A DNA stretch of 44,868 bases from positions 1 to 44,868 of the forward strand of contig JAKAPE010000004.1 of assembly GCA_021811945.1 (NCBI GenBank), in the 5' to 3' direction. The stretch comes from Pseudomonadota bacterium (GTDB lineage Bacteria > Pseudomonadota > Alphaproteobacteria > Rhizobiales > Xanthobacteraceae). Positions within the stretch are counted from its first letter, which is position 1. Each line of letters starts with the position of its first letter. Shown piece by piece: positions 4,255-37,433 of the stretch. The notes under the pieces are model-generated. The model was not told the DNA's origin. It saw only the letters and a program-made list of their open reading frames with translations, and did no database searches. The position numbers and the translations under genes are program-made.

Positions 4255-4336
4255 CAGACGACGGACGACAGAAGACGGACGACGGAAAAGAAGTTTTTCA
4301 TCCTCTGTCCTCTGTCCTCCGTCGTCTGTCCTCTGC
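4255..4336. repeat. GACGGA/CAGAGGA hairpin repeat (copy 1, rpoA-rplQ gap)
   Basis: The plus-strand left arm is built of GACGACGGACGACAGAAGACGG units. The right arm is built of CTCTGTCCTCTGTCCTCCGTC units and can pair imperfectly with the left over about 30 nt. The right end touches the rpoA stop codon. The same layout occurs at 10308-10399 and 28405-28487. Confidence 0.75.
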
Positions 4337-6503: not shown

Positions 6504-6658
6504 GACAAATTCGGTAAGAGGGGCAAAACTCGTGGCACGCAGTGCGGCATTGCACTGGAGCCGCTCCGAAAAGTAAGGCATTCCGGGCTTTTCGCGCGAC
6601 CGCACGCATCCGAAAACTCACTCTTGCCACGAGTTTTGCCCCTCTTACCAAATTCGTA
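6504..6658. repeat. Long inverted repeat around an 87-bp core (MITE-like)
   Basis: Arms 6513-6537 and 6625-6649 are perfect 25-bp inverted copies (GGTAAGAGGGGCAAAACTCG...), with weaker similarity reaching 6504 and 6658. The core (6538-6624) shows no gene. With the promoter at 6467-6495 this accounts for most of the 384-bp adk-rpsM gap. The layout resembles a small non-autonomous mobile element. No target-site duplication is evident. Confidence 0.6.
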
Positions 6659-10307: not shown

Positions 10308-10399
10308 GAGACGAGAGGACAGACGACGGACGACAGAAGACGGAAATATCTGTGCCGGGTCGCTTGCCTTATCTGTCCTCCGTCGTCCGTCCTCCGTCC
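10308..10399. repeat. GACGGA/CAGAGGA hairpin repeat (copy 2, rplR-rpsE gap)
   Basis: The left arm AGAGGACAGACGACGGACGA and right arm ATCTGTCCTCCGTCGTCCGT are nearly inverse copies around a spacer of about 35 nt. The right end touches the rplR stop codon, as in copies 1 and 3. Confidence 0.75.
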
Positions 10400-10762
10400 T
10401 CAGAAATTAAGCCCGGCCTCTCGCGCCGCTTCCGCCAAGGCCTTGACGCGGCCGTGATAGAGATAACCGCCGCGGTCGAAAACCACGTCCTTGACGCCCG
10501 TTTGCTGCGCCCGCTCCGCGATGAGCCTGCCGACGGTTTTTGCCGCCTCGACATTGGCGCCGGTCTTGAGCTCGCTACGCGTCGGCTTCTCGATCGAGGA
10601 GGCCGAGGCCAAGGTGACACCGCGGTCGTCGTCGATCACCTGCGCATAGATATGCTTGGAGGAGCGGAACACGCAGAGCCGTTTGCGGCCCTGCGCCGCC
10701 GCGCGCAACGCGCCCCGGACCCGGCTCCGCCGCCGCTCTATTCTGTGCTGCAACTTGCTCAT
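10400..10762 (-). CDS. rplR: 50S ribosomal protein L18
   Basis: A 120-residue protein that binds 5S rRNA with L5 and L25. Recognised by [20 protein letters not shown], the strand [21 protein letters not shown], and the C-terminal [28 protein letters not shown]. The length is usual. It is between rplF and rpsE in the spc operon. Confidence 0.97.
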
Positions 10763-19141: not shown

Positions 19142-19267
19142 TCCCCCTCTCCCCGCTTGCGGGGAGAGGGGCGGGTGAGGGGGTTTTGCCGCTTGGCTCA
19201 GTATCGCGGCAAGGCCCCCTCACCCGCTCGCTTCGCTCGCGACCTCTCCCCGCGCGCGGGGAGAGGT
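19142..19267. repeat. Palindromic repeat, CCTCACCC/CTCTCCCC family (copy 3, tuf-rpsJ gap)
   Basis: The left half has a stem CCCTCTCCCCGC-TT-GCGGGGAGAGGG then GCGGGTGAGGGGG. The right half GCCCCCTCACCCGC then CCTCTCCCCGCGCGCGGGGA is its inverse, so the whole unit can fold as nested hairpins. Closest to copy 4 at 35882-36017. Confidence 0.75.
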
Positions 19268-32606: not shown

Positions 32607-32926
32607 CATGTCCTCTCGCTCAATCGACGTCGGTTCGAGCGGCTTGGCTCGAACCGCTATGCCCGAACCCGGCGTTTAGGGTCCGGGATACCGGGGCATC
32701 GAGGCGATCAGGGCGACTCTCCAGAAGACCGCCATCCATCGCGGCCGTCGGGACAGGCGTCGAACCGCCTTATCTTCTGCGATTCGGCAAAGGCCGCCGA
32801 ATCTGTGCCGCTAGGCGGCAATCATGGCGATTCGGCAGCTTGAACCGCCGAAATCACCGCTTTCCACTGTTTCCGTCTGCGTTCTTGCCCGCGGCGTCGG
32901 CCCGGCCATCCGCGTCTTAGCCTCTC
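32607..32926 (-). other. rpoB upstream region
   Basis: No gene is supported between the rpoB start and the double-hairpin element. A perfect 10-bp stem CGGTTCGAGC/GCTCGAACCG (32631-32640 with 32647-32656) lies in the leader about 25 nt before the start codon. No clear promoter was found. Confidence 0.4.
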
Positions 32927-33089
32927 GTGTCCCGCTTCCGACGTTCGTATCACTTTGCCGCATGCCCTATTACGAACGTCGGAAGCAAAGGGACACCAGC
33001 AACTTTATGAATCTAGTGTGGTTTTGGATTTGACGCTCCGATGACGAGTTGCCGCAATGATGATCGGAGCGTCAAATCCACCACACTAG
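32927..33089. repeat. Double-hairpin variable-stem element, copy A (rplL-rpoB gap)
   Basis: Hairpin 1: outer GTGTCCC (32927-32933) pairs with GGGACAC (32990-32996), and inner CTTCCGACGTTCGTA (32935-32949) pairs perfectly with 32971-32985. A 16-nt linker CAGCAACTTTATGAAT follows. Hairpin 2: outer CTAGTGTGG (33013-33021) pairs with CCACACTAG (33081-33089), and GGATTTGACGCTCCGAT (33026-33042) pairs perfectly with 33063-33079. Copy B (37272-37433) shares ends, linker and loops but has different stems. No open reading frame is credible in it. Confidence 0.8.
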
Positions 33090-35881: not shown

Positions 35882-36017
35882 CCCTCTCCCCGCTTGCGGG
35901 GAGAGGGTCGGGGTGAGGGGGCGTCGCCGCTTTGCTCAGACTCGAGGTGAGGCCCCCTCACCCGCCATCCTTCGCTTACGCTTGGATGGCGACCTCTCCC
36001 CGCACGCGGGGAGAGGT
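35882..36017. repeat. Palindromic repeat, CCTCACCC/CTCTCCCC family (copy 4, nusG-rplK gap)
   Basis: The left half CCCTCTCCCCGCTTGCGGGG then GGGGTGAGGGGGC and the right half GCCCCCTCACCCGCC then CCTCTCCCCGCACGCGGGGA are mutually inverse. An internal CCATC/GATGG pair flanks a short loop in the right half. Most similar to 19142-19267. Confidence 0.75.
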
Positions 36018-37194: not shown

Positions 37195-37270
37195 TGGCAG
37201 GAGTGGAGGGACTCGAACCCCCAACCCCCGGTTTTGGAGACCGGTGCTCTGGCCATTGAGCTACACTCCT
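37195..37270 (-). tRNA. trnW: tRNA-Trp (anticodon CCA)
   Basis: A 76-nt cloverleaf including the encoded 3' CCA. Acceptor AGGAGTG pairs with CACTCCT, the anticodon loop is CTCCAAA with CCA at 37235-37237, and the T arm contains GGTTCGAGTCC. It precedes secE on the same strand, a common arrangement. The 5' end of the mature tRNA lies one base from the double-hairpin element B, so the promoter must be within or beyond that element. Confidence 0.97.
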
Positions 37271-37271
37271 A

Positions 37272-37433
37272 GTGTCCCGATTCCGAAGTTCGCATCATTT
37301 TGCGGCTCGCTCGTTTGCGAGCTTCGGAATCGAAGGACACTGGCAACTTATTGATCTAGTGTGACTTTGGTTCAGAAGTCCGCATGACGAGTACGCGGCA
37401 AGAATGATGCGGACTTCTGAACCGCCACACGAG
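37272..37433. repeat. Double-hairpin variable-stem element, copy B (upstream of tRNA-Trp)
   Basis: Hairpin 1: GTGTCC with GGACAC (37335-37340), and ATTCCGAAGTTCGCA (37280-37294) with 37316-37330 (one T-G wobble). Linker TGGCAACTTATTGAT. Hairpin 2: CTAGTGTG (37356-37363) with CACAC-GAG (37426-37433), and GGTTCAGAAGTCCGCAT (37369-37385) pairs perfectly with 37407-37423. Loop 2 GACGAGTACGCGGCAAGA resembles the copy A loop GACGAGTTGCCGCAATG. Confidence 0.8.

What the first reader, a model, noticed from the sequence alone, without database searches (positions are those of the whole stretch)
32927..33089. Double-hairpin element A: conserved frame with interchangeable stems
Copies A and B share ends (GTGTCC...ACAC, CTAGTGTG...CACAC), linker (GGCAACTTA/GCAACTTTA) and hairpin-2 loop (GACGAGT...). 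Their stems differ with compensating changes. In hairpin 2, 8 of 17 positions differ and both copies stay perfectly paired; in hairpin 1, 3 of 15 differ, all compensated. Such covariation means the fold (RNA or cruciform DNA) is kept while the arm sequence drifts or is exchanged. Within one copy the two stems also resemble each other (copy B: 13 of 15 bases identical), so stem 1 could pair with stem 2 as an alternative fold. Copy A lies between rplL and rpoB, a known control point. I do not recognise a described family with this design.
Basis: partly seen in the sequence, partly recalled or inferred. Interest (0 to 1): 0.85.

Follow-up and report, generated by a model that had tools for sequence, protein, structure and literature searches.

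The report
Twin-hairpin mobile DNA repeat (IS630-related)
The double hairpin next to rpoB is one of dozens of copies of a small gene-less jumping DNA element, seen in many Alphaproteobacteria, whose outer ends resemble those of IS630-type transposons and which lands at the four-letter site CTAG, sometimes at a gene's stop codon.

Summary
The element is 166 bp (32924-33089; second copy 37269-37433). This genome holds at least 15 near-full and 23 partial A places and 26 near-full B places. The stems covary: 101 compensatory branch events against 0-6 in slid controls. The constraint looks like DNA: G·T and A·C stem mismatches are equal, 100 v 105. It is a non-autonomous mobile element (MITE) of the IS630/Tc1-mariner kind. 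Nested insertions show target CTAG, with CTAG on both sides. The outer arms match the ends of an IS630 clade (best 23 of 27; all 32 ends). The inner arms do so weakly or not at all in register, because they carry extra bases, the conserved AA/AAA bulge. A covariance model matches 21 of 289 genomes of the class, one by chance. Closest described kind: CIR repeats of Caulobacter/Brucella, mobility unresolved. Not shown: transposition, and why inner arms stay paired. Only 6 of 25 element-bearing genomes had the IS clade.

The parts
32924..33089 (.). Copy A of the twin-hairpin element (166 bp, subfamily A), between rplL and rpoB
   Evidence: folds z -11.0
32924..32949 (+). Copy A left outer arm: CTCG tag + TGTCCCGCTTCCGACGTTCGTA; this arm position matches IS630 terminal repeats across the family
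32971..32999 (-). Copy A hairpin-1 inner arm with the AAA insertion and the mid-1 tag (CCAG)
33000..33012 (+). Linker CAACTTTATGAAT between the two hairpins
33013..33042 (+). Copy A hairpin-2 inner arm with mid-2 CTAG and the TTT insertion
33063..33089 (-). Copy A right outer arm ending in CTAG
37269..37433 (.). Copy B (165 bp, subfamily B), abutting the 5' end of the tRNA gene 37198-37270 (minus strand)
   Evidence: folds z -9.1
37269..37294 (+). Copy B left outer arm CTAGTGTCCCGATTCCGAAGTTCGCA, the arm used for comparison with IS630 ends
37407..37433 (-). Copy B right outer arm ending in CGAG (variant of CTAG)

Best explanation
The element is a miniature inverted-repeat transposable element of the IS630/Tc1-mariner kind, built as twins. 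An IS630-type transposase supplied by an autonomous insertion sequence (IS) binds the two outer arms, excises the 166-bp unit and inserts it at a CTAG site, leaving CTAG on both sides (TA, or all of CTAG, duplicated). Each hairpin is two inverted-repeat arms facing each other. Only the outer arm of each has the spacing of the IS ends. The inner arm carries a few extra bases, seen as the AA/AAA bulge, which I infer spoils it as a transposon end, so that the pair moves as one unit. Shown: repetition, near-identical copies at different sites, CTAG target in nested insertions, arm homology to IS630 ends, outer/inner asymmetry, strand-symmetric covariation, spread across the class. Inferred: the enzyme that moves it today, the silencing role of the bulge, and the reason the inner arms stay paired (selection for an extrudable DNA hairpin, or arm-to-arm copying during replication).
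For: Nested insertions of one element in another with CTAG on both sides of the insert (L240, L022, L145, L045; L012 with altered bases), junctions at a CTCG (L007, L034), and tandem copies sharing one CTAG (L173, L175, L198). Three own-genome copies sit at a gene's stop codon, and relatives' genes end at the same place without the element, some with TAG in CTAG; the downstream flanks are not conserved, so a full empty site was not seen. Transposases found by Pfam DDE_3 without regard to ends score 268-274 bits against the IS630 equivalog model, cut-off 100 (4 proteins). IS ends match hairpin 1's outer arm at up to 23 of 27. For all 32 ends of the 16 IS loci with an end pair, the mean best match is 14.5 of 22 to left outer arms (shuffled 8.5, sd 0.3) and 14.2 to right outer arms (8.6, sd 0.3), but 10.6 (9.0) and 8.3 (8.8) to the inner arms in register; for the 12 ends of six of the seven transposases ranked highest the outer means are 16.6 and 15.8. 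CTAG at both ends in 19 of 29 IS630-hit loci where a repeat pair was found, of 71 given. Inner arm longer than outer by 2-4 bases in 177 of 184 measured hairpins 1 and by 1-5 in 187 of 188 hairpins 2 (of 225, 26 had no measurable stem, then 15 and 11 no tag match). All 10 single-hairpin copies among 25 hits outside my full-length list have an outer-type right arm, read by eye; the search pattern itself demanded an outer-type left arm.
Against: Of 25 element-bearing genomes only 6 had a transposase of this IS clade at E<=1e-20, two of them as fragments; absent from G192 (1 contig) and from G026, which has identical copies. G028, complete and with at least 11 copies, has no DDE_3 hit at all. Among the 25 family genomes at least 90% complete, DDE_3 occurs in 9 of 15 with the element and 4 of 10 without, Y1_Tnp in 8 of 15 and 2 of 10, so co-occurrence does not single out IS630 (my count). 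No IS carrying twin hairpins at its ends was found. IS ends match the hairpin-1 arm at 10-23 of 27 in CTAG-type pairs, never exactly. Left and right tags of one copy are sometimes CTCG and CGAG (5 of 226), which a simple duplication of the target does not give. Within genomes most stem changes are one-sided: 19 both, 52 outer only, 55 inner only (82 copies). One own-genome copy (L090) shows hairpin 1 with its inner arm followed by other DNA, probably a truncation.
Confidence: 0.8

Rival explanations
1. The covariation is mutational, not selected: the long palindromes renew themselves by template switching between arms at the replication fork, and the element is an ordinary IS630 MITE whose inner arms are relics.
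For: Stems are near-perfect palindromes with no strand preference in mismatches. Inner arms are as invariant as outer arms although they lack the IS spacing (52 v 55 single changes).
Against: One-sided changes outnumber two-sided ones within genomes (107 v 19). The extra bases in the inner arm survive in almost all copies measured and in the class-wide loci that I read by eye, where arm-to-arm copying should erase them.
Confidence: 0.25
2. A host-used RNA or DNA hairpin, such as a two-way transcription terminator or mRNA stabiliser behind genes, spread by transposition and kept for that use.
For: Some copies sit directly on stop codons. At 329 element ends with a TAG tag, a single long open frame ends at that TAG in 47 cases, against 22 and 24 for the two other frames; at 83 ends without TAG the figures are 9, 5 and 9. 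In a Roseibium plasmid it lies between convergent genes.
Against: CTAG target choice plus removal of harmful insertions gives the same placement. No excess of G·U over A·C mismatches. No Rfam match at gathering score for the element; below that score, matches to microRNA and snoRNA families only, the best at E 5.8e-6 and 31 bits against a cut-off of 57, which I take as chance fits to long hairpins.
Confidence: 0.15
3. A REPIN-like element moved as single-stranded DNA by a RAYT (Y1) transposase.
For: Hairpins with fixed tags. Y1_Tnp genes occur in 19 of 61 genomes including this one, and in family genomes at least 90% complete they are commoner with the element (8 of 15) than without (2 of 10; my count).
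Against: No match to copies A or B at the 21 Y1 loci held, beyond a 13-bp one; other subfamilies were not used as queries. G028 is complete, carries the element and has no Y1 hit. No orientation bias with GC skew (86 of 157). The outer arms match IS630 ends.
Confidence: 0.05

Closest known systems
CIR repeats (Caulobacter/Brucella intergenic repeats with GANTC; review PMC2229807, passages and its section 4; the original paper, Chen and Shapiro 2003, is not held)
   Same: Two long inverted repeats forming two arms joined by a linker, the 5' and 3' sections folding independently; TA at the termini; GANTC sites; intergenic; alphaproteobacterial.
   Different: CIR is about 110 bp with GANTC at or partly in a terminal loop. 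Here mostly 164-168 bp (117-133 bp forms exist), with GANTC mainly in the stems and linker. The review marks CIR without terminal repeats, target duplication unknown, mobility unresolved; here outer arms match IS630 ends.
RUP of pneumococcus and other IS630-linked small repeats (PMC2229807, passage read, table)
   Same: Gene-less, TA ends, terminal repeats resembling those of IS630-Spn1, mobilisation in trans inferred.
   Different: The review says that repeat elements other than CIR have no arms or linker but one stem-loop formed by 5'-3' pairing; here two hairpins, four arms, an inner-arm insertion and a conserved linker.
IS630 family / ISY100 (PMC2170065, abstract and passages read)
   Same: Insertion into TA with TA duplicated; two-HTH transposase; 24-bp repeats thought sufficient. 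A preference of IS630 for TA in CTAG is the title of Tenzen and Ohtsubo 1991, seen only as a reference-list entry.
   Different: Autonomous, with a transposase gene; twin hairpins are not mentioned in what I read.
REP/REPIN with RAYT (PMC3733652, start of abstract and passages read)
   Same: Repeated intergenic palindromes with a fixed tetranucleotide tag, sometimes as dimers.
   Different: REPs are 20-40 bp with an unpaired GTAG or CGTC tag; here about 75-bp hairpins with a largely paired CTAG tag and no RAYT link found.
RIME of Rhizobium (named in PMC2573895, passages read; its length and two-palindrome design are recalled)
   Same: Repeated palindromic intergenic elements in Hyphomicrobiales.
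   Different: No match of copy B in 72,556 plasmids; the same collection holds S. meliloti pSymB. RIME sequences themselves were not compared.

Membership tests
IS630-type MITE | Short and without a transposase gene | tested here: met
   160-184 bp in the 225 copies kept by length
IS630-type MITE | Terminal repeats shared with an autonomous IS630 element | tested here: met
   Up to 23 of 27; 32 ends, 14.5 and 14.2 of 22 v shuffled 8.5 and 8.6; 4 transposases above the IS630 model cut-off. The match is never exact
IS630-type MITE | Target TA (CTAG) present on both sides after insertion | tested here: met
   Nested insertions; gene ends of relatives without the element
IS630-type MITE | Matching transposase present in genomes with recent copies | tested here: inconclusive
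   6 of 25 genomes; G026 with identical copies lacks the clade; G013, also with identical copies, is only 75% complete
IS630-type MITE | Mobilisation by the transposase | not testable with these tools
   needs an assay
CIR repeat | Two inverted-repeat arms joined by a linker, TA at termini | tested here: met
CIR repeat | Length about 110 bp | tested here: not met
   164-168 bp in 209 of 225 copies; 117-133 bp forms in other families of the class
CIR repeat | GANTC at or partly in a terminal loop | tested here: not met
   GANTC mostly at alignment columns 11 (199), 59 (192) and 86 (96), i.e. stem arms and linker; a hairpin-2 loop site at column 124 in 41 of 225
CIR repeat | Sequence homology to CIR1-4 | not tested
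   sequences not held
REPIN/RAYT | Unpaired GTAG or CGTC tag on a 20-40 bp palindrome | tested here: not met
   CTAG the commonest tag at both ends (180 and 164 of 226), about 75-bp hairpins
REPIN/RAYT | RAYT gene flanked by the repeats | tested here: not met
   no match to copies A or B in 21 Y1 loci beyond 13 bp
Structured RNA family of Rfam | Match at gathering score | tested here: not met
   only a tRNA in the window

The most novel reading that the evidence does not exclude
A class-wide lineage of twin transposable elements has been held together by a built-in device: a 2-4 base insertion in each inner arm disables the inner ends, so that neither hairpin can leave alone, while selection for paired arms keeps all four arms evolving in step with changing IS630 transposases. 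CIR repeats, whose mobility is unresolved, would be short members of the same lineage.
Probability: 0.35. Interest if true: 0.75.

Novelty: new variant of a known kind. Interest (0 to 1): 0.56.

Why it matters
It would give a mover (IS630-type transposase, CTAG target) for two-armed intergenic repeats of Alphaproteobacteria, whose mobility a 2007 review leaves open. It offers a natural test of how arm spacing controls which ends a mariner-type transposase uses. It also warns that strong stem covariation in bacterial intergenic DNA can come from mobile DNA hairpins and not from RNA, which matters for RNA-discovery pipelines. Insertions that reuse a CTAG stop codon show how such an element can multiply with little harm.

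Tried and rejected
RAYT/REPIN origin: Y1_Tnp search, flanks of 21 Y1 loci, protein types, GC-skew orientation; disfavoured, though Y1 genes are somewhat commoner in element-bearing genomes. RNA element: Rfam and mismatch symmetry; not supported. Autonomous copy with a gene between the hairpins: half-element scan of the loci held then, with every third non-redundant copy as query, and reading frames around six hits; none found. The sequence shared by L092, L093 and L095 behind a truncated copy is a different repeat, not shown to be the source. Plasmids and phages: no match of copy B; a Nitrobacter copy with flanks matches Roseibium and Labrenzia plasmids. Tags as a plain target duplication: variants are oriented to the element, not to the target, so unsettled. 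Insertion at stop codons as the rule: only about a two-fold excess.

Rows dropped: 232 candidate elements to 226 after removing repeats and N, to 225 by length, to 159 at 95% identity. One search was given 46 of the 47 references chosen (L025, a partial copy, left out). In one search flanks of 30 of 39 own copies were joined; three pairs were used. In one search, 118 pattern hits: 93 in full copies of my list, 25 others, of which 4 are full copies removed earlier as duplicates, 11 are truncated, disrupted or at contig ends, and 10 are single hairpins. One search used 12 IS ends of my choice; one search repeats it with all 32 ends (one pair per locus, the CTAG-bounded pair for L373). Searches scored 40 of 91 and 40 of 80 candidates, so copy numbers are lower bounds.

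Full report
What is there. Each has the same anatomy: tag CTAG (or a variant such as CTCG), hairpin 1 (outer arm, loop, inner arm), tag, a 12-13 base linker, tag, hairpin 2 (inner arm, loop, outer arm), tag. Hairpin 2 is a diverged inverted copy of hairpin 1, so the element reads alike from both ends. As single-stranded DNA both copies fold far better than shuffles (z -11.0 and -9.1). Copy A lies between rplL and rpoB; copy B abuts the 5' end of a tRNA gene.

How many copies. In this genome (399 contigs) subfamily A gives 15 near-full places at 96-100% identity and 23 partial ones, 20 of these at or within 10 bases of a contig end, so that some pieces may be halves of one copy (40 of 91 candidates scored; contig lengths where the end is not base 1 or 2). 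Subfamily B gives 26 near-full places at 82-100% (40 of 80 scored). Of 60 other genomes, 20 have matches by DNA similarity, all in the same family. A covariance model built from 46 copies matched 21 of 289 genomes of the class, including this one. Of the 20 non-own loci read, one (L401) is a chance hairpin; shorter 117-133 bp forms are among the matches.

Covariation. On 159 non-redundant copies I counted changes along a tree: 36 compensatory branch events in hairpin 1 and 65 in hairpin 2, against 0-2 and 0-4 when partners are slid by 1-3 columns; breaking events were 134 and 184, against 158-254 and 210-292. On alignment A2, 95.6% of 2389 cells pair, 36 of 52 pairs have double changes (shuffled mean 20.3), and the covariation score is 0.348 against 0.134. 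A home-made tree-based null with background correction gave only 4 significant pairs, all in the hairpin-2 stem; the stems change in few, clade-wide steps. G·T (100) and A·C (105) mismatches are equal in the stems. RNA selection on one strand should favour G·U, so the constraint looks to be on DNA, or on both strands.

How it moves. Some copies lie inside or against others. In L240, L022, L145 and L045 an element sits in the CTAG of another, and the outer element resumes after a CTAG; L012 is a like case with altered bases; L007 and L034 join at a CTCG; tandem copies in L173, L175 and L198 share one tag. At three own-genome copies the left CTAG holds the TAG stop codon of a gene, and the genes of relatives end at the same codon without the element, some with TAG in CTAG; their downstream flanks are too different to show a full empty site. 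Single open frames of 150 or more codons reaching the tag use the TAG frame in 47 cases against 22 and 24 for the other frames (329 ends with TAG; 9, 5 and 9 at 83 ends without).

The partner. A search for the IS630-type catalytic domain (PF13358) was made without regard to ends. One locus, L320, turned out to be an IS with ends CTAGTGTTCCGTCCCGGAAATTCGC; L319, L342 and L340 (this genome) followed. L342's transposase is 62, 52 and 51% identical to the other three, and all four score far above the IS630 model's cut-off (Pfam domains). A wider search (149 genomes of the family, 31 with a match) gave more ends. Against hairpin 1's outer arm the best reach 22 and 23 of 27 (L352, L355), the poorest CTAG-type pairs 10-11 (L371). 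All 32 ends of 16 loci match outer arms at 14.5 and 14.2 of 22 positions on average (shuffled 8.5 and 8.6), and the inner arms in the same register at 10.6 and 8.3 (shuffled 9.0 and 8.8), so that only the hairpin-1 inner arm keeps a slight excess (12 ends of top-ranked transposases). CTAG flanks both ends in 19 of 29 IS630-hit loci with an end pair. A 107-bp insert in copy L080 has ends like those of another IS630 element of this genome (L341), a second example of the same habit.

The bulge. The extra bases that bulge in each stem lie on the inner arm: hairpin 1, +2 to +4 bases in 177 of 184 measured; hairpin 2, +1 to +5 in 187 of 188. They put the inner arms out of register with the IS ends. 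All ten single-hairpin copies seen have an outer-type right arm, the left one being fixed by the search pattern. Yet inner arms are about as constant as outer arms within genomes, and both are more constant than loops in all six groups compared. I infer that the insertion disables the inner ends and keeps the twin together, and that pairing is kept for a separate reason, which is not shown.

Against this. The IS clade was found in only 6 of 25 element-bearing genomes, and not in some that are complete or have identical copies; G028 has neither a DDE_3 nor a Y1 hit. Co-occurrence within the family does not favour IS630 over Y1 (DDE_3 in 9 of 15 with and 4 of 10 without the element; Y1 in 8 of 15 and 2 of 10; genomes at least 90% complete, my count). 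The tags vary in a way that a plain target duplication does not explain: often A to C in the base next to the element's G, at all four tags, in this genome above all. No transposition was observed.

What it is called. It works like an IS630 MITE and meets the tests that could be made, apart from the open one on the partner. It resembles CIR closely in design, but length and GANTC position differ and the CIR sequences were not held, so I do not file it there. No title or start of abstract listed or 97 describes this family; most subscription papers are not in that library.

Noticed in passing
window 37269-37272 and 37198-37270: Copy B's CTAG overlaps the first bases of the tRNA gene (minus strand), so the element directly abuts the tRNA's 5' end.
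   Followed up: no
window 19146-19266 and 35883-36016: Another repeated palindrome (CCTCTCCCCGC..GCGGGGAGAGG), present at two places as pairs of near-identical copies (I5 and I6).
   Followed up: no
window 4255-4335 and 10315-10401: Imperfect inverted repeats made of short GACGACGGACGACAGA-like units (I2, I3, I17).
   Followed up: no
window 6505-6657: A 33-bp inverted repeat, 94% complementary, 87 bases apart (I1).
   Followed up: no
L080 about 1552-1666: A single-copy insert of 107 bp between two CTAGs, in the mid-2 CTAG of an A copy; its ends resemble those of the IS630 element in L341.
   Followed up: partly
L092, L093, L095: Three B-type first hairpins end at GATCTA and continue into a shared sequence of about 150 to 310 bases, then diverge; an unidentified repeat.
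   Followed up: partly
L165:3400-3475 and L336:801-877: In Nitrobacter the element abuts a repeat that also matches S. meliloti pSymB at five places; in the one read it too ends in CTAG.
   Followed up: partly
tags of G000 copies: CTAG tags of this genome mostly vary more than its stems (left tag 0.107 v 0.013 in subfamily A), often by A to C; in G013 and G011 most tags vary less than loops.
   Followed up: partly
L335:2501-2674: In a Roseibium plasmid the matched stretch lies between convergent genes and an annotated SDR gene ends inside its last bases.
   Followed up: no
window, CTAG sites: CTAG occurs 14 times against 29.1 expected from its trinucleotides; four of the 14 starts (33013, 33086, 37269, 37356) are element tags.
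   Followed up: no
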